NCBI GenBank assembly: GCA_016291725.1
Contig: JAEEYJ010000196.1
Location: forward strand, 1 to 28,345
Direction of reading: 5' to 3'
Origin: Solobacterium sp.
Lineage (GTDB): Bacteria; Bacillota_I; Bacilli_A; Erysipelotrichales; Erysipelotrichaceae
Length of the DNA stretch: 28,345 nucleotides
Shown here: positions 4,246 through 22,795 of the stretch, in pieces
Position numbering within the stretch: the first letter of the stretch is position 1
How the letters are laid out: every line of letters starts with the position of its first letter
The notes under the pieces: model-generated
Database searches by the model: none
What the model was told of the DNA's origin: nothing
Seen by the model: the letters and a program-made list of their open reading frames with translations, nothing else
Position numbers and translations under genes: made by a program

Positions 4246-5748
4246 ATGATCAAAGATGAAAAGATTCTGATCGGCAAAGCAGGAGACAAGGAAATCTTCA
4301 TGTATCCGAAGCAGATGAACCGGCATGGGCTGATTGCCGGCGCATCCGGTACAGGTAAAACCGTTACACTGAAAGTCATAGCGGAATCATTGGCAGAGAT
4401 CGGTGTACCGACAGTCATTGCGGACATAAAGGGTGACCTGTCCGGCATGATCGTTCCCGGTGATGCTGATGGGATCCAGGGACGTCTGGAATCCATGGGC
4501 ATCGAAGACTACGAGACCCGGAAGTACCGTGTTCATTTCTTTGATGTATACCAGACAGAAGGACATCCTATCCGTGCCGTTATGCAGGAGATGGGTCCGC
4601 TTCTGCTGAGCAGGATCATGGATCTGACGGAAGCTCAGGAAGGGATCCTCAATATCATTTTCCGGGTTGCCAGGGATATGGATCTGGCCATCTATGACCT
4701 GAAGGATCTCCAGGCAATGACGAACTACGTCTATGAAAAGTCAAAGGAACTGTCCGGCCAGTACGGCAATGTATCCAAGCAGAGCGTCGGTGCCATTCAG
4801 AGAAAGCTTCTGGTACTGGAGGAACAGGGAGGCAATCTGTTCTTCGGTCTTCCGGCATTGAACATTGATGACTGGATTGCCAGAGAAGGCGGCCAGGGTG
4901 TCATGAACATCATTGAATGTGATCAACTGTTCCAGCATCCAGCACTGTATTCCATGTTCCTGTTCTGGATGCTCAATGAACTGTATGAAAATCTGCCGGA
5001 AGTCGGTGATCTGGACAAACCGAAACTTGTGTTCTTCTTCGACGAAGCGCATCTGCTGTTCCAGGATGCTCCGAAACAGCTTCTGCAGAAGATCTCACAG
5101 ACCGTGAAGCTGATCCGTTCCAAGGGTGTCGGTGTATTCTTCTGCACCCAGGTTCCCAGCGATATCCCGTCCGATGTACTGGGACAGCTGAGCAACCGGA
5201 TCCAGCATTCACTGCGTGCCTATACACCGTCCGAGATCAAGGCTGCTAAGCTTGCGGCGGAAAGCTTCCGCCAGAATCCCGAACTGGATGCTGCAGAGGC
5301 GATTTCCAACATGAAGACAGGAACGGCACTTGTATCCGTGCTCGGAGATGACGGTGCTCCGACGATTGTTGAAAAGACAAAGATTCTGCCGCCCCGAAGC
5401 AGTATGAATATTGCGGACAAGGCTTTGGTGGAAAGGTGCATCAACAACGATTCCATCTACGGCATCTATGAGAAGACCATCGATCCGGACAGCGCCTATG
5501 AGATCATCGACGATATCCGGGCAGATGAAATACGGGTAGAGCAGGAGCAGAAAGAAGCGGAAGCGCGCGAGAAGGCCGAGGCCAAGGAAGCAGAACGCCA
5601 GGCTCGGGAAGAAGCGAAGAGAAAAGCCAGTGAACAGTCGTGGAGCGACCGTATGAGCAAGAAGGCCCAGAGAAAGCTGGAAACCGAACTGATCAACATG
5701 GCTGCCAGATCGGCAAAGAAAATGCTGAAGAACTTCCTGAACAGGTAA
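4246..5748 (+). CDS. HerA-like ATPase/helicase, DUF853 (YjgR) family
   Basis: This 500-residue P-loop ATPase belongs to the HerA/FtsK-type group, DUF853 branch (YjgR in E. coli), whose cellular role is not settled; DNA translocation or unwinding is inferred from the fold. Walker A is GASGTGKT at residues 32-39 and Walker B is FFFDEAH with D266 and E267. KGDLSGM, LLSRIMDLTEAQEGIL and the ISQTVKLIRSKGVGVFFCTQ segment are typical of the family. The C-terminus (about 425-465) is a Lys/Glu/Ala-rich helical stretch, probably a coiled coil. GGGAGA seven bases before ATG 4246 supports the start. It is probably cotranscribed with recG and rnc, and a terminator follows. Confidence 0.88.
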   Translation: MIKDEKILIGKAGDKEIFMYPKQMNRHGLIAGASGTGKTVTLKVIAESLAEIGVPTVIADIKGDLSGMIVPGDADGIQGRLESMGIEDYETRKYRVHFFDVYQTEGHPIRAVMQEMGPLLLSRIMDLTEAQEGILNIIFRVARDMDLAIYDLKDLQAMTNYVYEKSKELSGQYGNVSKQSVGAIQRKLLVLEEQGGNLFFGLPALNIDDWIAREGGQGVMNIIECDQLFQHPALYSMFLFWMLNELYENLPEVGDLDKPKLVFFFDEAHLLFQDAPKQLLQKISQTVKLIRSKGVGVFFCTQVPSDIPSDVLGQLSNRIQHSLRAYTPSEIKAAKLAAESFRQNPELDAAEAISNMKTGTALVSVLGDDGAPTIVEKTKILPPRSSMNIADKALVERCINNDSIYGIYEKTIDPDSAYEIIDDIRADEIRVEQEQKEAEAREKAEAKEAERQAREEAKRKASEQSWSDRMSKKAQRKLETELINMAARSAKKMLKNFLNR

Positions 5749-15402: not shown

Positions 15403-16068
15403 ATGAACGCGGAAACGGTTCTCCGGGAGATGCCGTTCTTCGTTCATCTCACAGAGGATGAGAAGAATCTGGCCCTGACTACAGTCAGTACCCGGACTTA
15501 CAGGAAAGGGGATATTCTTCACTCCCATACTTCGGAATGCCTTGGTCTGATCCGTCTTCTGAAAGGAAGCGTCCGGGTCACCATGCAGTCGGCAGAAGGA
15601 AGGGAAATCACAATCTATACACTCCAGGAAGGAGACGCAGATGTTCTGGCAGCGTCCTGTGTCATCAATCAGATCACTTTTGATACATTGATGATCGCTG
15701 ATACAGATGCAGAAGTGCTGATCCTTCCTGCAGCTGCAGTATCCTCAATGGACCGCAGCAACATCTATGTACACAGCTATCTCATGGAACTGAGTACAGA
15801 GCGATTCTCCGACGCTATGTGGACCATGCAGCAGATTCTGTTCCTGCGGATGGACCAGCGGGTAGCGAACTGGCTTCTGGATGAGTATTCACGTACAGAC
15901 AATCCGGAGATCAATGCAACCCAGGACCATATTGCCCGCAGTATCAGCTCCGCCAGGGAAGTCACTTCCCGTGTGCTGGGCAGAATGGAAAAGGACGGTC
16001 TGATCCAGACGAAACGGGGCAGCGTCCGGATTCTGGACGCAGACGGGCTGGAGGCACTGCTTGGATAA
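15403..16068 (+). CDS. Crp/Fnr-family transcriptional regulator
   Basis: The 221-residue protein has the two-part layout of the family: an N-terminal cyclic-nucleotide-type sensor domain (about 10-125), a long dimerisation helix, and a C-terminal winged helix-turn-helix (about 165-220) with TQDHIARSISSAREVTSRVL as the recognition region. It lacks the N-terminal cysteine cluster that binds iron-sulfur in Fnr, so an oxygen-sensing cluster is not expected. The sensor domain does hold Cys in SECLGL and AASCVIN. The ligand is unknown. The gene lies eight bases after trxA, so control by redox state is a reasonable guess only. No strong Shine-Dalgarno sequence precedes ATG 15403. A strong terminator follows. 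Confidence 0.87.
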   Translation: MNAETVLREMPFFVHLTEDEKNLALTTVSTRTYRKGDILHSHTSECLGLIRLLKGSVRVTMQSAEGREITIYTLQEGDADVLAASCVINQITFDTLMIADTDAEVLILPAAAVSSMDRSNIYVHSYLMELSTERFSDAMWTMQQILFLRMDQRVANWLLDEYSRTDNPEINATQDHIARSISSAREVTSRVLGRMEKDGLIQTKRGSVRILDADGLEALLG

Positions 16069-16071
16069 AGC

Positions 16072-16099
16072 AACACGGAAGAATTTCCGTGTTTTTTTT
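16072..16099 (+). terminator. Rho-independent terminator after the Crp-type gene
   Basis: AACACGGAA (16072-16080) pairs perfectly with TTCCGTGTT (16085-16093) around a GAAT loop, followed by eight T in a row (16092-16099). It isolates trxA and the regulator from the type VII-like locus. Confidence 0.93.
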
Positions 16100-16151
16100 G
16101 TGCGCTTTGCATGAACTGTGCGAATAACGGTAGTGAAAGGAGTTGATAGAC

Positions 16152-16451
16152 ATGAGAGTCATTACCGTCACACCGGCACAGCTGGAACAGACCGCAGCCC
16201 GGATCGACAGCGAAACAGACAACTACCGCCGCCTGTATACGCAGCTGTTCGATGCTGTCGACACGATGAAGGCAGGATGGTCCGGCAAGGACAATGAAGC
16301 ATTTACGAACCGTATCCACACATTCGAAAGTGATTTCCACCAGATTTCCGTACTCTGTACGCAGTACGCTGAATTCCTGCGCAATTCTGCCGGTGCATAC
16401 CGAAGGACACAGGAAACAATCACTTCACAGGCAAACCAGCTGAAGGGATGA
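16152..16451 (+). CDS. WXG100-family protein (EsxA-like), first of pair
   Basis: The 99-residue product has the size and helical-hairpin pattern of WXG100 proteins, with the turn motif W43-S-G45 in GWSGKDNEAF. Such proteins are small dimeric substrates or structural partners of type VII secretion. It lacks a signal peptide, as expected. The C-terminal helix ends in Gln/Thr-rich residues, and I see no exact YxxxD/E secretion signal. GAAAGGAG nine bases before ATG 16152 supports that start over an in-frame TTG at 16143. It begins a tight operon of five genes and starts 52 bases after a strong terminator; I found no convincing promoter in that gap. Confidence 0.9.
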   Translation: MRVITVTPAQLEQTAARIDSETDNYRRLYTQLFDAVDTMKAGWSGKDNEAFTNRIHTFESDFHQISVLCTQYAEFLRNSAGAYRRTQETITSQANQLKG

Positions 16452-16461
16452 GGAGGACTTT

Positions 16462-16761
16462 ATGGACCATTTGAACATTTCACTCGAACAGGTCAGTGAA
16501 ACAGCCGCATTGCTGAGAACACTGAACCAGTCCATGTATGATTCGCTGCAGCAGATGAAACGCTTTATGAACGACACGGATTCTTCCTGGATGTCGGAAG
16601 CCGGGGAGACCATCCGTACCCGGTTCAATCAGTTTGCTCTGCGCTTTGAATCCCAGAAAGAAGATATTGATAGCTATGCTCGTTTTCTGGACCGTACCGT
16701 AACAGACTACGATACGCTGGAGACGACGCTGAATGCCAATGCGTCGGGCATGCAGAACTGA
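16462..16761 (+). CDS. WXG100-like protein, second of pair, with a W-M-S turn
   Basis: It is also 99 residues and helical. The hairpin turn has W43 at exactly the same position as its neighbour but reads W-M-S followed by EAG, so the glycine of WxG is replaced or shifted. The C-terminal helix contains YDTLE, which fits the YxxxD/E export signal. Together the two suggest a heterodimer in which this protein supplies the signal; that is inference. AGGAGG five bases before ATG 16462 supports the start. The 3' end overlaps the lipoprotein gene by 29 bases. Confidence 0.83.
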   Translation: MDHLNISLEQVSETAALLRTLNQSMYDSLQQMKRFMNDTDSSWMSEAGETIRTRFNQFALRFESQKEDIDSYARFLDRTVTDYDTLETTLNANASGMQN

Positions 16762-18814
16762 TCGTTTCTGTACAGTATTTCTCTGCAGCATCCTGTTGCT
16801 ATCAACGGGATGCAGCAGGGAAGATGGTGAAACGATCAGCAACGGGGAATGGCTGTACGAAATCAGCCGCAGAGCAGGGCTGCCGGAAAATGATGCTCCG
16901 GCTGCCTTTATGAACATCACAGAGGACAGCATCTATTACCAGACGGTACAGAACGCAGTCGGATGGGATGTGGTCAGCACAGATATACCGCTTGATCCGG
17001 ATGAACCGCTGAACAGGGGTTTTGCGGCCTATACACTGATGAACCTGGCGGGTACATCAAAGTCTTCCGGGCGGCAGATCAAGGACATTTCAGACAGCCC
17101 ATACCGTGAACAGATTGAACAGGCAGTCGCGTTCGGGCTGTTTAATCTGGATTTCCGGTCCTGTTTCCGGCCGGACGAATGGATGGACCGGCAGGACAGT
17201 CTGCTTAAGCTGGAAACCGTGCTTGATTACATCAACGGGCGCATACCGCCGGTACAGAACAGTATTGAGATTCCTGATACGGTAGAAGAAAAACCGTCAG
17301 TCAGCGATCTGCCAAACGGTACAGCTTATTACTCGGGCAGACCGCAGATCAGTACAGGTATGCTCATAGAGGAGGACGGAGCCTATTACACCGTTGATCG
17401 TGTCAATGAAGATAAAAAGGGTATCACTGTAGAAGTTCACAGATCGGAACCGGAGGAAATTGCCGGCAGTTTCCGTATCGCCGGTACTTCAAAGATTGAC
17501 TTTACGAAAGCCGAAGTCATTGAATCATTCGACGGCAATCGCATGAAGAGTTCTTATACGGAGCCTGACCATACGAAGCTTGCGGCTCTGTATATCGCTT
17601 CACCACTGATGCATTCCTTTGAGTACAAAGGATATACCATCGATTGGGGCCTCTCATCTTCAGATATACATGTCAGCGTTGAGAAAGAATTCAGCAGCGG
17701 CCGGCATTTTCATGCCTTGTTCCGTCTGTCCAATGTTCAGCCGGTATATGACTGGCAGTATGATCAGGGAAAGATCGAGAAAGGCTATTTCCGGATTGAC
17801 AGTCTTGCTACGGAAAAAGTCAGCTTTACCGGCACAGCATCCAGAAACCTGAACAGCGATCTGAACGAACTGGACCCTTATGATCTGCTGGGAACGATCC
17901 GCTCTGTGTTCAAAGAGAGTGAAGCTGCAGATCTTGTTATTCCTATCTGCACACTTCGTATACCGCTTCCCGACCAACCATTGCTTACATTGGCACTGCG
18001 CCTGGAACTGACGCTGAAAGCCGATGGAAAGGCTGAACTCACACTGACACAGAACAGCAGCGTTGGTATGGAAATACGCAACGGCAAAATGCGGATGATC
18101 CGGGAGCTGAACAATGACAGCCAGGGACAATGCTGGGCTTCGGCCGAGGCTGCAGCCAATCTGTTTTTCGGGCTGAATGCGGGCAGCTTTGTGCTGGCTG
18201 ATATCGGGACACTGACCGGTATCCAGGCAAAAGTACAGCCTTATATTCACCTGTACAGAGGTAAAAATCACACGATTGTTCAGGAAAATAACGTAGGCTA
18301 TGACATTCTTGATGAGCACAGTACACCGGATTTTCTTGTCTGTGCTGACTTGATGGCAGGCTGGATTATGGATCTGGAGCTGAATTCTGCGGCAACACTG
18401 GCCGGCAGGCTGGGTTTTTCGTACAGCGGAACAATTCTGAAACCGGATCAGGACAGCATACTTCCACCGGGAATGAGGCATATGGAGAATGGTATGTTCA
18501 TGCGGGAGTGCACAAGAGGTGACAGAGAAATACAGGGTGAAAAAGCTGCTGCACCGCAGACGGAAAGAATCAGGATTTCTTCATACAGTCTGATCATTGA
18601 TCCGCAGGAATCCATTGAACTGCCTGTCACCGCACTGCCGGAAGGATACAGCATGAATGATCTGACCGTCCTCTCACTCGATCCGGATACGGTATCCGTT
18701 GAAGGGCTTCGCATAGCAGGCAGAAAGCCGGGAAGTGCAAGGATACGCATCAGCACAACAGACAGCCGGTACAGTGTGGAATGCTCTGTCTTGGTAAGGA
18801 GTCCTGCGGTATGA
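16733..18814 (+). CDS. Large lipoprotein with SLH-like and BIG2-like regions, in the type VII-like operon
   Basis: I do not recognise a named family. The 693-residue product starts with a lipoprotein signal: Arg-rich start, hydrophobic stretch FCTVFLCSILLL and lipobox LSTGC with Cys27, so it should be anchored outside the membrane. Residues about 35-170 resemble two S-layer-homology repeats (for example DISDSPYREQIEQAVAFGLF, then FRPDEW). About 180-580 is a long region probably rich in beta structure, with no match I can name. About 615-690 resembles a BIG2 immunoglobulin-like domain (ISSYSLIIDPQESIELP, then GRKPGSARIRI). ATG 16733 (or 16739) starts inside the preceding gene, and the stop overlaps the essC start as ATGA, so translation is coupled. 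It could replace EssB-like membrane or wall parts; that is speculation. Confidence 0.85.
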   Translation: MPMRRACRTDRFCTVFLCSILLLSTGCSREDGETISNGEWLYEISRRAGLPENDAPAAFMNITEDSIYYQTVQNAVGWDVVSTDIPLDPDEPLNRGFAAYTLMNLAGTSKSSGRQIKDISDSPYREQIEQAVAFGLFNLDFRSCFRPDEWMDRQDSLLKLETVLDYINGRIPPVQNSIEIPDTVEEKPSVSDLPNGTAYYSGRPQISTGMLIEEDGAYYTVDRVNEDKKGITVEVHRSEPEEIAGSFRIAGTSKIDFTKAEVIESFDGNRMKSSYTEPDHTKLAALYIASPLMHSFEYKGYTIDWGLSSSDIHVSVEKEFSSGRHFHALFRLSNVQPVYDWQYDQGKIEKGYFRIDSLATEKVSFTGTASRNLNSDLNELDPYDLLGTIRSVFKESEAADLVIPICTLRIPLPDQPLLTLALRLELTLKADGKAELTLTQNSSVGMEIRNGKMRMIRELNNDSQGQCWASAEAAANLFFGLNAGSFVLADIGTLTGIQAKVQPYIHLYRGKNHTIVQENNVGYDILDEHSTPDFLVCADLMAGWIMDLELNSAATLAGRLGFSYSGTILKPDQDSILPPGMRHMENGMFMRECTRGDREIQGEKAAAPQTERIRISSYSLIIDPQESIELPVTALPEGYSMNDLTVLSLDPDTVSVEGLRIAGRKPGSARIRISTTDSRYSVECSVLVRSPAV

Positions 18815-21800
18815 TGGTTTACTCTTCCGATGGTCAGATCGTATTCCTGAAAGGGACGAAGGTCTGGCTCGATGCGCTTGGCAGACAGATATCCTTTATC
18901 CGCAATGCAGGGAAATGGTATCTCCGGCTGCCCCATGATCTGTACACAGATACCCACAGGGAAGCTGTACATCAACTGCATATTGTGATCAATGAAAAGT
19001 ACGGGGGCAGGAATCTGTCCCTGTACTTTTCCCAGTATGATACAGGTTACTTTTCGTATCATAAATACCGGTATGCAGAACGCGTAACGATAGGCAGTTC
19101 CATAGAAGATGACATCTATGTCCAGGATATCAACATGCAGGAGTATGTACTCCTGCGGGATGATGGTAAACTGCGGCTGCTGAAGGGTGAAGAAACAATA
19201 CTGGAGCCTGTGAACGGCAGCCGGTTCCAGTATCTGAATCTGTGCATTGTATTTCATAGTGACTTCATCATGGTCAATTGTCCGTCAAATATCTATGTAT
19301 CACTGCAGACATATACAATACCGGAACCGTACGGTATCCTGCCGCAGGGACAGAAACAGACTGTACGTCCTGTATACCGCAATCCTGTTCTTACAGATGA
19401 ACTGCAGATAACGCTCCGCGAACCGATGCAGGCTGAAGTATTCCGCAGAATGCCTTTGATCTTCAGCGTTGGACCGGCACTGACCATGTCGTCAGCTGCT
19501 TTGCTGGTGGGCAGTATATCCGTATACCGAGGCTGGATGAACGGCAGGCAGATCATGGATATGCTGCCGATGGTGCTCCTGCCTGCAGTCATGGTGATCA
19601 GCGCGCTTGTCTGGACACCTATGCAGAGAATCTATGAGCGAGCCAAGGAAAAGAAGCAGCTGCGGAGACGGCAGGAAGACTATTCCCGGTACATTGAAGC
19701 AAGGTATCAGGAAGCCGATGCCTTCATGCATGAATACAGCAATCATGTACAGCAGTTGTTCCCGGACCTGCATGCACTTCCGGACAGCGTACCATACCAG
19801 CGTATGCCGTTTCATCGTGATTGGTTGACGGTGCGTTTGGGACATGGCATTCATGAATTCCGGATCAAGTATGAAATGCGTTTTAAAGTCGAAAAAGAAG
19901 ATTCACTGTATCCGGTGCTCCAGCGTCTTCTGGATTACACTTCTATCGATACACTCTATCTTCTCCATCTCACAGAGCATCGGAAGTATGCTGTACTGGA
20001 TGAGGCAACCGCACTGTATATCTTTGTACAGCTCTGCTGGTTCCACAGTCCGGCCGAACTGAAAATCTGCATTGCGGCCGATGAGAAATGGTTCACCGAT
20101 CATAGGTTTGTCTATCACATTCCTCACGTTATGTTAGGCAGGGAAGGATCCGGCCTGCGGCTGTTTGCGTCTGATGACAATAGCCTGCAGTCATTGATCA
20201 ACGAACTGGACGGACGAAAGGAACCGTGTATACTGTTTGCTTTCGGAAATTCCGTTGATACTTCATCGTTTCCCGGGATCACCATAAACTGTGTGAATGA
20301 AGAACAGATTCCTTACGAAACTGAAGCTGTAATCGATGGATCAGGAAGGGTGTCCTGCGAAGCGGATCAAACATGCTTTGTACCGGATCAGACCGAGGAA
20401 GAGGATATGCTTCAGGTACTGTCAGAGCTGAACCGGTATTGTATACAGGGAAATGATAATCTTCTGCTGTCTGCTGCGCCTTCTTTCTTTGATCTGTATG
20501 GGATCGGAAACGCTGCAGAAGCAATGATTGAACAGCACTGGTACAGCAATCGGGCCAAGGATGCAGTCCGGGCAGTGATCGGCCTGCAGGAAAACGGTAA
20601 GCCGTTGATTCTTGATCTGCATGAAAAAGCCCAGGGACCGCACGGTCTCATTGCCGGTATGACAGGAAGCGGCAAGTCGGAACTGATCATTTCACTTGTT
20701 CTTTCCCTCGCCGTTTCCTACAGTCCCAGGGAACTGCAGATTGCGATGATCGATTTCAAAGGCGGGGGCGCTGCCGGTATGCTTACCCGCGGACAGTACC
20801 GTCTGCCGCACATCAGCAGTGTACTGACCGATCTGGATGATTCCATCATCGAAAGGGCACTGGTCTCTTTCCAGAGTGAATGCCGCAGACGGGAAGAACT
20901 CTTTACATTGCTCGGTGAATACCATCAGACGGCAGTCATGGATATACATCAGTATCAGGAAGTGTGGGAACAGGACTGCGGTCTGCCTTATCTTTCCGAA
21001 CTGGTCATTATTGTGGATGAATTCGCTGAACTGAAGAAGAATCATCCGGATTTCATGAAGGACCTGATTACACTGGCAAGGGTAGGCAGAAGTCTGGGTG
21101 TGCACCTGATTCTGGCAACACAGAAACCAGCGGGCATCGTTGACGAACAGATCTGGTCAAACAGCCGTTTCAAGCTCTGTCTGCGTGTACAGGACAAGCA
21201 GGACTCCATGGAAGTGCTGCATGATGAATGCGCTTCAAAGCTGCGTAATCCGGGGAGTTTCTATCTACTGTGCGACGGTACATTGAAAAAGGGCAGCAGT
21301 GGATATACCGGACTGCCGGCTTCAAGGAATTCATGCTCTGTGTCATTGCTGTCGCTGCAGGCACAGCGGACATGGACAGTACATGGAGAAGACAAAGTCT
21401 CTGAGTCCCAGCTGAATGCAGTTCTGAAAGAGATTCACAGCGTTTATGTACAGGGGCAGTATGATGTACATCCTCTGTGGCTTCCACCGATGCATTCCGT
21501 TATGCCGGGACAGATCAACCGTTTACATCGGGTGCTGGGATTGATTGATGATTACCGGAACAACAGAAGGAAAGAGCTTGTACTGGAACCATATACTTCT
21601 GTCTTCATTGATTCTTTGAACCGAGTGGAGAAACGATCCTTTCTTGCCAATGTACTTTCGACTGTTCTTTCCGGCAGTGCAGAGCAGGTGGTCATCATCA
21701 ATGACAGTATGCCGGAAATCAATGCATGGGAGGAAAGCGGCAGACTGTCCGGCGTGTTTCCGAGCACAGATGGCTTTCGTATGCAGTGGTTCGCTGAAGA

Positions 21801-22560
21801 TGTTTCCAGCTCTAGAGCACTCGGCACAGCAGTAGTTATTACCGATATTTCTGCCTTTCTCGAAACAGAAAAAAACATTAAGTATCTGAACCGTTGGCTG
21901 GAAAATACAGAAATGCTGCACATGACACTCATTGTATTCGCTTCTTCCGCCCAGAGTATACCTTTCCGGATGCTGTCACTGTTCCGCATGCGCCTGAGTC
22001 TGCAGAACGAGAACAGACAGGACCTCAGCCTCCTGTTTGAAAAGAATGCCGACCGGGTGGTCAAAGAGGAGAAACATGGACTTGTGAGGGAAGACGACCT
22101 GATGCTGTTCTGCTGGCCGGATACTGAAATGCCCGATCCATCCGCCATGCCCGGCAATCATTACCGTGTACCAAGCATACCTGATCATTACACTCCGGAT
22201 GATCCGGGTGTCGTCGGACTGCGGATGAAGGACTGCACCGGTTTCCGACTGCCTCCGAGAACAATCATTGTATATGAAAGCAACCGGTTTGCTGAGTGGA
22301 TGAAGAACAGACTGATCCGTTCCGGACGGACAATCGATGAATCCATCAATTCCGTTCCAGCAGTCTTTGACCTGATTCTTATGAATGAGAATGCATTCCG
22401 CAGTATTCCTGCATCTGTACTGCCCGATATCCTTTACTGCGGCGGACGCTACCGCTCCTATTACACATTGCCGGTTCTGAGAGAAGACATCCCGGAACAT
22501 TGCGGTGTCTACGTCCATGATGGAAAAGCGGAGGTGATCCTGCTTGCAGAATACGACTGA
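18811..22560 (+). CDS. essC: Type VII secretion ATPase, EssC-like (FtsK/SpoIIIE family)
   Basis: This is the motor and membrane core of an Ess/Yuk-type secretion system. The 1249-residue product has an N-terminal region with an FHA-like segment (about 85-150, VTIGSSIEDDIYVQD), two membrane segments (about 214-239 and 249-271), then an FtsK/SpoIIIE ATPase with Walker A GMTGSGKS (616-623), Walker B LVIIVDE (731-737) and RVGRSLGVHLILATQKP. A second ATPase-like region has no P-loop (residues 931-943 in its place) and the end (from about 1150) resembles a short remnant of a third. It is shorter than the S. aureus protein of about 1480 residues. ATG 18811 is chosen because AAGGAG lies nine bases upstream. 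Confidence 0.92.
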   Translation: MMVYSSDGQIVFLKGTKVWLDALGRQISFIRNAGKWYLRLPHDLYTDTHREAVHQLHIVINEKYGGRNLSLYFSQYDTGYFSYHKYRYAERVTIGSSIEDDIYVQDINMQEYVLLRDDGKLRLLKGEETILEPVNGSRFQYLNLCIVFHSDFIMVNCPSNIYVSLQTYTIPEPYGILPQGQKQTVRPVYRNPVLTDELQITLREPMQAEVFRRMPLIFSVGPALTMSSAALLVGSISVYRGWMNGRQIMDMLPMVLLPAVMVISALVWTPMQRIYERAKEKKQLRRRQEDYSRYIEARYQEADAFMHEYSNHVQQLFPDLHALPDSVPYQRMPFHRDWLTVRLGHGIHEFRIKYEMRFKVEKEDSLYPVLQRLLDYTSIDTLYLLHLTEHRKYAVLDEATALYIFVQLCWFHSPAELKICIAADEKWFTDHRFVYHIPHVMLGREGSGLRLFASDDNSLQSLINELDGRKEPCILFAFGNSVDTSSFPGITINCVNEEQIPYETEAVIDGSGRVSCEADQTCFVPDQTEEEDMLQVLSELNRYCIQGNDNLLLSAAPSFFDLYGIGNAAEAMIEQHWYSNRAKDAVRAVIGLQENGKPLILDLHEKAQGPHGLIAGMTGSGKSELIISLVLSLAVSYSPRELQIAMIDFKGGGAAGMLTRGQYRLPHISSVLTDLDDSIIERALVSFQSECRRREELFTLLGEYHQTAVMDIHQYQEVWEQDCGLPYLSELVIIVDEFAELKKNHPDFMKDLITLARVGRSLGVHLILATQKPAGIVDEQIWSNSRFKLCLRVQDKQDSMEVLHDECASKLRNPGSFYLLCDGTLKKGSSGYTGLPASRNSCSVSLLSLQAQRTWTVHGEDKVSESQLNAVLKEIHSVYVQGQYDVHPLWLPPMHSVMPGQINRLHRVLGLIDDYRNNRRKELVLEPYTSVFIDSLNRVEKRSFLANVLSTVLSGSAEQVVIINDSMPEINAWEESGRLSGVFPSTDGFRMQWFAEDVSSSRALGTAVVITDISAFLETEKNIKYLNRWLENTEMLHMTLIVFASSAQSIPFRMLSLFRMRLSLQNENRQDLSLLFEKNADRVVKEEKHGLVREDDLMLFCWPDTEMPDPSAMPGNHYRVPSIPDHYTPDDPGVVGLRMKDCTGFRLPPRTIIVYESNRFAEWMKNRLIRSGRTIDESINSVPAVFDLILMNENAFRSIPASVLPDILYCGGRYRSYYTLPVLREDIPEHCGVYVHDGKAEVILLAEYD

Positions 22561-22795
22561 TGTGCATCTCTTCATCGAAATTGCCGTTATGCAGGAAACA
22601 TATGAATGCCTGTTTCATCGTTATTCATCACTGGATGACAGTCTGCAGCTGCTCGCTTCGGCTTTGCCGGAGGATACATTCTGTATGGATGAAGAAACGA
22701 TGGTCATAGAAAAGCAGACAGGAAGAATCTGCGATCGATGGATCAGCCCGGCAAAGCAGGGCATCTGCGACGGTATGACGCTGACAGTATACTGA
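22544..22795 (+). CDS. Small ubiquitin-fold protein, YukD/EsaB-like
   Basis: The 83-residue product has the pattern of YukD/EsaB, small beta-grasp proteins encoded in type VII loci of Bacillota and needed for secretion: an opening strand VHLFIEIAV, a central helix SSLDDSLQLLASAL, and the ending GICDGMTLTVY, similar to the GITNGDRLEI type of ending. TTG 22544 is taken as start: a ten-base perfect Shine-Dalgarno match GGAGGTGATC (22530-22539) stands upstream, and the first strand needs these residues. The next in-frame ATG (22589) would remove that strand. The gene overlaps the end of essC by 17 bases and closes the operon. Confidence 0.75.
   Translation: MQNTTDVHLFIEIAVMQETYECLFHRYSSLDDSLQLLASALPEDTFCMDEETMVIEKQTGRICDRWISPAKQGICDGMTLTVY

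What the first reader, a model, noticed from the sequence alone, without database searches (positions are those of the whole stretch)
16152..22795. Compact type VII-like secretion locus without EsaA, EssA or EssB
Seen: five tightly coupled genes, namely a WXG100 pair, a large lipoprotein, an EssC-like ATPase and a YukD/EsaB-like protein. Known: the Bacillota Ess/Yuk systems of S. aureus and B. subtilis need EsaA (YueB), EssA and EssB (YukC) besides EssC and EsaB. None of these three is encoded in or beside the locus. Inference: this is a reduced or divergent system in which the lipoprotein, or unlinked genes, takes over the missing envelope parts.
Basis: partly seen in the sequence, partly recalled or inferred. 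Interest (0 to 1): 0.78.

Follow-up and report, generated by a model that had tools for sequence, protein, structure and literature searches.

The report
Five-gene stripped-down type VII secretor
Gut bacteria of one family carry a very small version of a known protein-export machine, in which several of the usual parts are missing and a surface lipoprotein with a predicted wall-binding fold always stands beside the motor gene; it offers a simple way to ask what such a machine really needs.

Summary
In detail: WXG100–WXG100–lipoprotein–EssC–YukD-like genes fill 16152–22795. Profiles for EsaA, EssA and EssB find nothing in this genome (81% complete) and nothing over cut-off in 60–70 genomes of its genus. 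In 41 of 41 lipoprotein-bearing stretches examined (window's genus and 11 others of its family, Erysipelotrichaceae), EssC is adjacent. It is not a stripped T7SSb. WXG2 belongs to NF035934, as do second WXG proteins of T7SSe-like clusters, and lipoprotein homologues lie in 12 such clusters of other Bacillota; 10 of 11 compared also carry kinase, phosphatase or DUF6382–FHA relatives, absent from this locus. The lipoprotein is predicted to hold an SLH (wall-polymer-binding) fold, a long-stranded beta middle and a Big_2 domain. EssC keeps one ATPase: the domain 2 P-loop is lost (0 of 23 rows, against 12 of 12 in those clusters) and domain 3 is truncated, although WXG2 keeps the YxxxD/E export signal (36 of 36). 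LXG proteins: 0 of 70 genomes over cut-off. Best reading: a reduced, fast-evolving sister of T7SSe that exports a WXG heterodimer. New variant of a known kind; function untested.

The parts
16072..16100 (+). terminator-like hairpin plus T-run between the Crp-type regulator gene and WXG1
   Evidence: 9 pairs, TTTTTTGTGC tail; but 6 such sites found in the region against 5.0 expected, so suggestive only
16152..16451 (+). WXG1 (TsxA-like), WXG100 protein with the WxG turn, no YxxxD/E tail motif; ORF opens at 16143 (TTG)
   Evidence: WxG in 39 of 39 sequences, YxxxD/E in the last 25 residues in 0 of 39
16462..16761 (+). WXG2 (TsxA2-like), NF035934 family, W-x-S turn, YxxxE tail motif (YDTLE)
   Evidence: 127 bits, cut-off 100; YxxxD/E 36 of 36, WxG 1 of 36, WxS 33 of 36
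16733..18814 (+). large lipoprotein, 693 aa (start perhaps 16739, where relatives begin)
   Evidence: lipobox-like pattern ending at cysteine 27; model pLDDT 81
16811..17248 (+). lipoprotein residues 27-172: three-repeat SLH fold
18554..18808 (+). lipoprotein residues 608-692: Big_2 Ig-like domain
18811..22560 (+). EssC-like membrane ATPase (ORF opens at 18781; relatives begin at the ATG at 18811 that overlaps the lipoprotein stop)
19078..19278 (+). EssC residues 100-166: FHA-like N-terminal domain
   Evidence: aligns with the FHA domain of L112 EssC in the profile comparison; PF16697 in 2 of 8 sequences of A3, no FHA hit in the window protein
20557..21132 (+). EssC ATPase domain 1, the only one with a P-loop (GMTGSGKSE) and VDEFAEL
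21493..22560 (+). EssC degenerate ATPase domain 2 (no Walker A) and truncated domain 3
22544..22795 (+). YukD/EsaB-like small protein (TsxB-like), TTG start overlapping EssC

Best explanation
A reduced type VII secretion system of the Erysipelotrichaceae, apparently inherited vertically, sister to the T7SSe kind. WXG1 and WXG2 form a heterodimer that is the main exported cargo: WXG1 brings the WxG turn, WXG2 the YxxxE tail (inferred from motif partition). EssC assembles as the usual membrane ring and is driven by ATPase domain 1 alone; the YukD-like protein docks on it (inferred from other T7SS). The lipoprotein sits on the outer face of the membrane, with its SLH fold against the cell-wall polymer and its beta region and Ig domain beyond, and acts as tether or cap of the export site (inferred from predicted folds and linkage). 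Kinase, phosphatase and FHA adaptor genes of related clusters are not at this locus, and LXG proteins are not found. Shown: gene set, order, distribution, domain make-up, genes not found. Inferred: heterodimer, export, motor use, role of the lipoprotein.
For: EssC next to the lipoprotein in 41 of 41 lipoprotein-bearing stretches, all five in place by script in 34 of 41 (stretches chosen). Lipoprotein in 64 of 70 genus genomes at E <= 1e-21 (my count), 40 of 145 family genomes in 16 of 59 genera, 120 of 294 order genomes, one of them outside the family. Exactly two WXG100 hits in 52 of 70 genus genomes (my count). LXG 0 of 70 over cut-off. DUF6382 2 of 70. NF035934 for WXG2 here and in L112, L102, L053, L206. 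Lipoprotein homologues in 12 of the 68 loci L048-L115; kinase, PP2C and DUF6382-FHA by Pfam in L112 and L095. D1 P-loop in 41 of 41 EssC; D2 GK 0 of 23 rows here against 12 of 12 and 50 of 55. SLH and Big_2 folds. EssC with the T7SSe-like rows as one clade not rejected, p-AU 0.618.
Against: No experiment shows secretion. EssC branches are very long, so its place is unsure; a clade with the lipoprotein-bearing rows of other Bacillota alone is rejected (p-AU 0.015). The SLH binding motif is only partly kept: my pattern finds one TRE-like motif in 17 of 23 sequences and none in 6, never more than one per protein. A lipobox pattern is found in 31 of 41 lipoproteins. One of 41 EssC (L170) has a P-loop-like string outside the domain 2 position. 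A WXG-fused candidate effector exists in one genus genome (G058), and five of 70 genomes have four or more WXG100 hits, so cargo may not be only the pair. The machine proteins diverge fast (EssC and lipoprotein about 31% identity within the genus), which could also mean relaxed constraint.
Confidence: 0.62

Rival explanations
1. A classical T7SSb (Ess/Yuk) whose EsaA, EssA and EssB genes lie elsewhere in the genome or were lost recently, the lipoprotein standing in for them.
For: EssC scores best with TIGR03928, NCBI's EssC model for Firmicutes; the own genome is only 80.9% complete.
Against: EssB 0 of 60, EssA 0 of 70, EsaA 0 of 70 over cut-off, B. subtilis control positive each time. EssB-bearing genomes exist in the class (6 of 247 over cut-off); three EssC of that kind form their own branch (100/100). 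TIGR03928 also fits a T7SSe-like EssC, L112, at 1043 bits. The WXG pair and lipoprotein tie the locus to T7SSe-like clusters.
Confidence: 0.05
2. A decaying or non-secreting remnant: EssC has lost most of two motor domains and the genes drift.
For: D2 P-loop lost, D3 truncated, EssC down to 873-874 aa in two genomes; EssC, lipoprotein and YukD 25-31% identical within the genus (medians) against 76% for InfB.
Against: D1 P-loop in 41 of 41, lipoprotein-EssC linkage in 12 genera; WXG pair at about 53% median identity within the genus, with the WXG2 tail motif in 36 of 36.
Confidence: 0.12
3. A working T7SS whose real cargo is unlinked effectors (WXG-fused or of unknown type); the WXG pair is only the core trigger, and the lipoprotein is a surface receptor for target cells, not a structural part.
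For: G058 encodes a 346-aa protein with a WXG100-like N-terminus (20.3 bits, below cut-off) and an HELAH motif; Ig domains are common in adhesins (recalled).
Against: 52 of 70 genus genomes have just two WXG100 hits (my count), LXG 0 of 70 over cut-off.
Confidence: 0.2

Closest known systems
T7SSe (and the related T7SSd/T7SSj) of Garrett, Higginson and Palmer 2024, PMC11217815
   Same: Described without EsaA/EssA/EssB; WXG pair (TseA, TseA2), YukD-like TseB, EssC with FHA-type N-terminus (read); WXG2 is NF035934 here and in T7SSe-like loci
   Different: No kinase (TseD), phosphatase (TseF) or DUF6382-FHA (TseJ) at the locus, no room for TseH or TseK between the five genes; no TseI with C-terminal membrane helix, but a lipoprotein with SLH and Big_2; ATPase domain 2 without P-loop and domain 3 truncated; gene order WXG-WXG-lipoprotein-EssC-YukD against EssC-YukD-WXG-WXG-lipoprotein in the lipoprotein-bearing relatives
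T7SSe-like clusters of other Bacillota (mostly titled Clostridia, Lachnospiraceae, Oscillospiraceae) with the homologous lipoprotein: L048, L054, L055, L066, L074, L076, L078, L084, L095, L099, L105, L112
   Same: Homologous lipoprotein, WXG and YukD genes, EssC; FHA in EssC shown for L112
   Different: Long EssC (1519-1548 aa) with D2 GK in 12 of 12; relatives of kinase, phosphatase or DUF6382-FHA genes in 10 of the 11 compared; the word lipoprotein does not occur in the main text of PMC11217815
T7SSg (PMC11217815)
   Same: Five components, WXG pair, YukD-like protein, EssC, one extra protein
   Different: TsgC lacks FHA; the extra protein is a DUF5050 beta-propeller; Tad pilus genes beside it. 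None of this was found here
T7SSb (Ess/Yuk) of S. aureus and B. subtilis
   Same: EssC-type ATPase, WXG100, EsaB/YukD
   Different: EsaA, EssA and EssB not found; WXG pair instead of one EsxA

Membership tests
Type VII secretion system (any) | EssC/EccC-type FtsK ATPase encoded with a WXG100 protein | tested here: met
T7SSb | EssB (PF10140) | tested here: not met
   own genome 0 hits, 0 of 60 genus genomes over cut-off; own genome 80.9% complete
T7SSb | EssA (PF10661) | tested here: not met
   own genome 0, 0 of 70 over cut-off
T7SSb | EsaA (TIGR03929) | tested here: not met
   0 of 70
T7SSe | WXG100 pair TseA/TseA2 | tested here: met
   two WXG100 genes; WXG2 in NF035934 like the second WXG of L112, L102, L053
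T7SSe | ubiquitin-like TseB | tested here: met
   by profile chain only; no direct Pfam hit
T7SSe | TseC with N-terminal FHA | tested here: inconclusive
   aligned onto the FHA domain of L112 EssC; no Pfam FHA hit in the window protein
T7SSe | kinase TseD and phosphatase TseF at the locus | tested here: not met
   locus has five genes; scanned flanks hold neither; genome-wide not tested
T7SSe | TseJ (DUF6382-FHA) | tested here: not met
   own genome 0; 2 of 70 genus genomes
T7SSe | TseH and TseK, short single-helix membrane proteins | not tested
   no profile at hand; no further gene lies between the five
T7SSe | TseI, large Ig protein with C-terminal membrane helix | tested here: not met
   none at the locus; the lipoprotein has one Ig domain and no C-terminal helix in the model; genome-wide not tested
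T7SSg | DUF5050 beta-propeller TsgL and adjacent Tad genes | tested here: not met
   no DUF5050 hit, SLH and Big_2 folds; no Tad genes among the 15 scanned neighbours
NF035934 (NCBI name: pore-forming ESAT-6 family) | score over curated cut-off | tested here: met
   WXG2 127.3 bits, cut-off 100; pore formation not tested
SLH-domain proteins | three-repeat SLH fold | tested here: met
   predicted model only; Pfam SLH in 7 of 23 sequences, not the window's; motif only partly kept; polymer binding not testable here

The most novel reading that the evidence does not exclude
A separate T7SS subtype in which export of a WXG heterodimer runs on ATPase domain 1 alone: the third ATPase domain, which binds the signal in other systems, is truncated, yet the YxxxD/E signal is strictly kept, so substrate reading must happen elsewhere; and an SLH-Big_2 lipoprotein, not an integral membrane protein, forms the extracellular part.
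Probability: 0.45. Interest if true: 0.75.

Novelty: new variant of a known kind. Interest (0 to 1): 0.6.

Why it matters
It is as small as the smallest T7SS gene sets described (five genes, none a recognised regulator or toxin) and its lipoprotein-EssC core is kept in at least 12 genera of one family, in its own genus usually beside translation genes, which hints at a core function rather than an arms-race toxin system. It makes two open questions testable: which ATPase domains are needed for export, and how the WXG tail signal is read when the domain known to bind it elsewhere is truncated. It also points to an undescribed lipoprotein component shared with T7SSe-like systems of other Bacillota.

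Tried and rejected
Considered and rejected: T7SSb with unlinked parts; T7SSg (no DUF5050, no Tad genes among scanned neighbours); the lipoprotein as EssB (no profile hit; other predicted folds); nesting of this lineage with the lipoprotein-bearing EssC of other Bacillota alone (p-AU 0.015). A strict P-loop pattern at first seemed to say that many relatives also have one P-loop only (4 of 12 lipoprotein-bearing rows, 31 of 55 others); the column-wise comparison showed GK at the domain 2 site in 12 of 12 and 50 of 55 of these, against 0 of 23 here and 0 of 1 for L206. The middle of the lipoprotein (about residues 175-600) had no clear structural match; its separate fold was not obtained. Foldseek's first row, a phage tail-tube protein (5ngj), had TM-scores of 0.10-0.16 and was not taken as a match.

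Led nowhere: the PDB sequence search with the lipoprotein profile gave 11 rows, 10 of them on the C-terminal Ig-like part and one at chance level; Streptomyces EccC rows as outgroup gave long branches. PMC10949312 (passages) and the papers listed (listings only) did not bear on the question.

Promoter-like sites were fewer and terminator-like sites about as many as in shuffles. L167 was left out of alignment A4 because its match had a stop in frame.
Full report
Observation. The five genes are present as described: WXG1 16152-16451, WXG2 16462-16761, lipoprotein 16733-18814, EssC 18811-22560 (open frame from 18781), YukD-like 22544-22795. Three of the four joints overlap (read from the ORF coordinates). 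WXG1 and WXG2 match WXG100 (42.2 and 27.5 bits, cut-off 27.3); WXG2 also matches NF035934 at 127 bits, cut-off 100. EssC matches FtsK/SpoIIIE and TIGR03928, the latter at 410 bits below the cut-off of 778. The lipoprotein and the YukD-like protein match nothing directly. The window lies in contig 22 of a 1.67-Mb, 218-contig assembly, 80.9% complete. Of the neighbours, 15 ORFs were scanned: FakA-like, RecG, ribonuclease III, HerA-like, RimP, NusA, IF-2, Crp-type, TruB, RibF, RsmF-type, Asp23-like, IF-3, L20, and one without a match; rbfA, a thioredoxin-like gene and a polC-sized ORF are named by eye only.

Who else has it. The lipoprotein found 8 proteins at E <= 0.001 among the 7,994 candidates scored from 5.8 billion, two of them named as Solobacterium sp. 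assemblies. With their profile, 66 of 70 genomes of the genus match at E <= 0.001; by my count 64 of 70 match at E <= 1e-21, two only weakly, four not at all. In the family 40 of 145 genomes in 16 of 59 genera match at 1e-15, in the order 120 of 294, one of them (G458) outside the family. I fetched 40 stretches around lipoprotein hits: 20 of the 64 genus hits and 20 of the 34 other-genus hits (11 further genera), chosen for contig room. EssC is adjacent to the lipoprotein in 41 of 41 with the window; the script finds all five in place in 34 of 41. Of the seven others, three had WXG1 in the WXG2 slot (L145, L164, L173; for the genomes of L145 and L164 the genome-wide search lists two WXG100 hits), two have an 80-aa ORF at the YukD place below threshold (L153, L154), and two have a recombinase gene where the pair should be (L152, L159). 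infB or rbfA upstream together with truB, ribF or rsmF downstream were found in 14 of 20 genus and 4 of 20 other stretches, besides the window; so that place is usual in the genus, not in the family. Equal contig lengths suggest that G037 is Erysipelotrichaceae bacterium NK3D112 (L046) and that G002 and G022 are Solobacterium sp. MAGs (L047, L037) (inference).

What is not found. EssB: 0 of 60 genus genomes over cut-off, one weak hit in G026. EssA: 0 of 70 over cut-off, weak hits in three. EsaA: 0 of 70. In each case the B. subtilis control was positive. LXG: 0 of 70 over cut-off, one weak match with stops in G004. DUF6382: 2 of 70, in assemblies listed with 10% and 7% contamination. WXG100: 62 of 70 genomes have hits; by my count 52 have exactly two, five have three, five have four or more, eight none. 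So in most genomes, the own one included, the locus pair seems to be the whole WXG100 set.

Relation to known systems. I read parts 1-4 of 7 of the text and the Discussion of PMC11217815 and searched its main text for Erysipel, Solobacterium, lipoprotein, SLH, Big and degenerate: 0 each. It describes T7SSc-T7SSj; in what I read none of them is given EsaA, EssA or EssB. The profile of 45 lipoproteins (A4) found homologues in 12 of the 68 loci L048-L115, which were fetched by EssC; all 12 also have YukD and WXG hits, in the order EssC-YukD-WXG-WXG-lipoprotein (L055 from its hit positions, L099 with an extra WXG gene). Matches cover N-terminal and C-terminal parts. Pfam scans show kinase, PP2C and DUF6382-FHA genes in L112 and L095, and FHA genes in L078 and L066; by BLAST clusters, 10 of the 11 loci compared hold relatives of at least one of these three, L099 none in its stretch. 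That is the make-up given for T7SSe. Neobacillus novalis L059 has the same three regulators and a lipase-like gene but no lipoprotein homologue in the stretch held. The second WXG protein of L112, L102, L053 and L206 is NF035934 like WXG2 here. G458 (L206), in the same order but another family, has EssC-YukD-WXG1-WXG2-lipoprotein, with a 1124-aa EssC frame whose FHA domain is still recognised. An EssC tree of 100 rows put 23 rows of this lineage with L206 (SH-aLRT 100) apart from 66 rows of the 12 lipoprotein-bearing and 54 other loci; a careful tree of 41 chosen rows gave 94/88 for this lineage and 91/55 with L206. Holding this lineage with all those T7SSe-like rows is not rejected (p-AU 0.618), holding it with the lipoprotein-bearing rows alone is (p-AU 0.015). 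Branches are long, so sister position is a best guess.

The motor. All 41 EssC have a P-loop in domain 1, one in a variant form; one (L170) has a P-loop-like string at residue 1129, outside the domain 2 site. At the domain 2 P-loop, GK is found in 0 of 23 rows of this lineage and 0 of 1 for L206, but in 12 of 12 lipoprotein-bearing rows, 50 of 55 others, 4 of 4 T7SSb, 3 of 3 second systems of the genus and 1 of 2 Streptomyces EccC. After domain 1 there are 171-459 residues (median 407) against 575-641 in the others, except L205 (T7SSb, 344) and L206 (350). The profile alignment puts domain 2 of L112 on the degenerate stretch and stops early in domain 3. In mycobacterial EccC the third ATPase domain binds the EsxB tail, and YxxxD/E is the required motif (passages of PMC6954902). 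Here WXG2 keeps YxxxD/E in 36 of 36, WXG1 in 0 of 39; WxG is in WXG1 39 of 39 and WXG2 1 of 36. So the signal is kept while its known reader is truncated.

Rates. Median identity to the window within the genus: EssC 30.7%, lipoprotein 31.3%, YukD 24.9%, WXG1 52.5%, WXG2 53.5%; InfB 76.4%, RbfA 68.1%, TruB 51.3%, RsmF 44.6%, RibF 40.5%. The machine changes faster than its cargo pair and than these neighbours, for a reason unknown.

In print. Searches of the held open-access library for type VII secretion with Solobacterium, with Erysipelotrich (with and without EssC), with Lachnospiraceae, EssC and WXG100, with S-layer homology, lipoprotein and WXG100, and for T7SSk and T7SSe showed no title or abstract start describing this system; T7SSe occurs only in PMC11217815 (listings, plus passages of PMC10949312). 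Of PMC9600267 I saw passages. Subscription papers and supplements were not searched.

Verdict. A real, conserved, reduced T7SS, best read as sister to the T7SSe kind: new variant of a known kind. The mechanism (heterodimer export by a single-motor EssC with a wall-tethered lipoprotein) is inferred.

Noticed in passing
L152, L159, L222, L223, L212 (G033, G055): A serine-recombinase gene sits directly before the lipoprotein gene, with a type I restriction gene (shown for G033) further up; in G055 the WXG pair is on another contig with WXG2 cut to 85 aa, in G033 no WXG100 hit is found.
   Followed up: partly
L216:3682-4722 (G058): 346-aa protein with a WXG100-like N-terminus (20.3 bits, below cut-off) and an HELAH metalloprotease-like motif: a candidate T7SS effector.
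   Followed up: partly
L209, L210, L211 (G026, G064, G025): A second T7SS with long EssC (1498-1567 aa), WXG and YukD-like genes occurs in some genomes of the genus beside the reduced one.
   Followed up: partly
L205 (G074): A genome of the same family has an EssB-type T7SSb, with a 1099-aa EssC frame, and no lipoprotein hit.
   Followed up: no
L217-L219: Permease-sized gene (FtsX domain shown in L218) next to a long coiled-coil lipoprotein-like gene with a weak WXG100 match inside; probably unrelated.
   Followed up: no
window 15403-16068: Crp-type regulator directly upstream of the locus in this genome, followed by a terminator-like hairpin; no gene with that label in the 40 fetched stretches.
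   Followed up: no
window 4246-5748: HerA-like helicase (HerA_C, E 5.5e-181) between a ribonuclease III gene and a polC-sized ORF.
   Followed up: no
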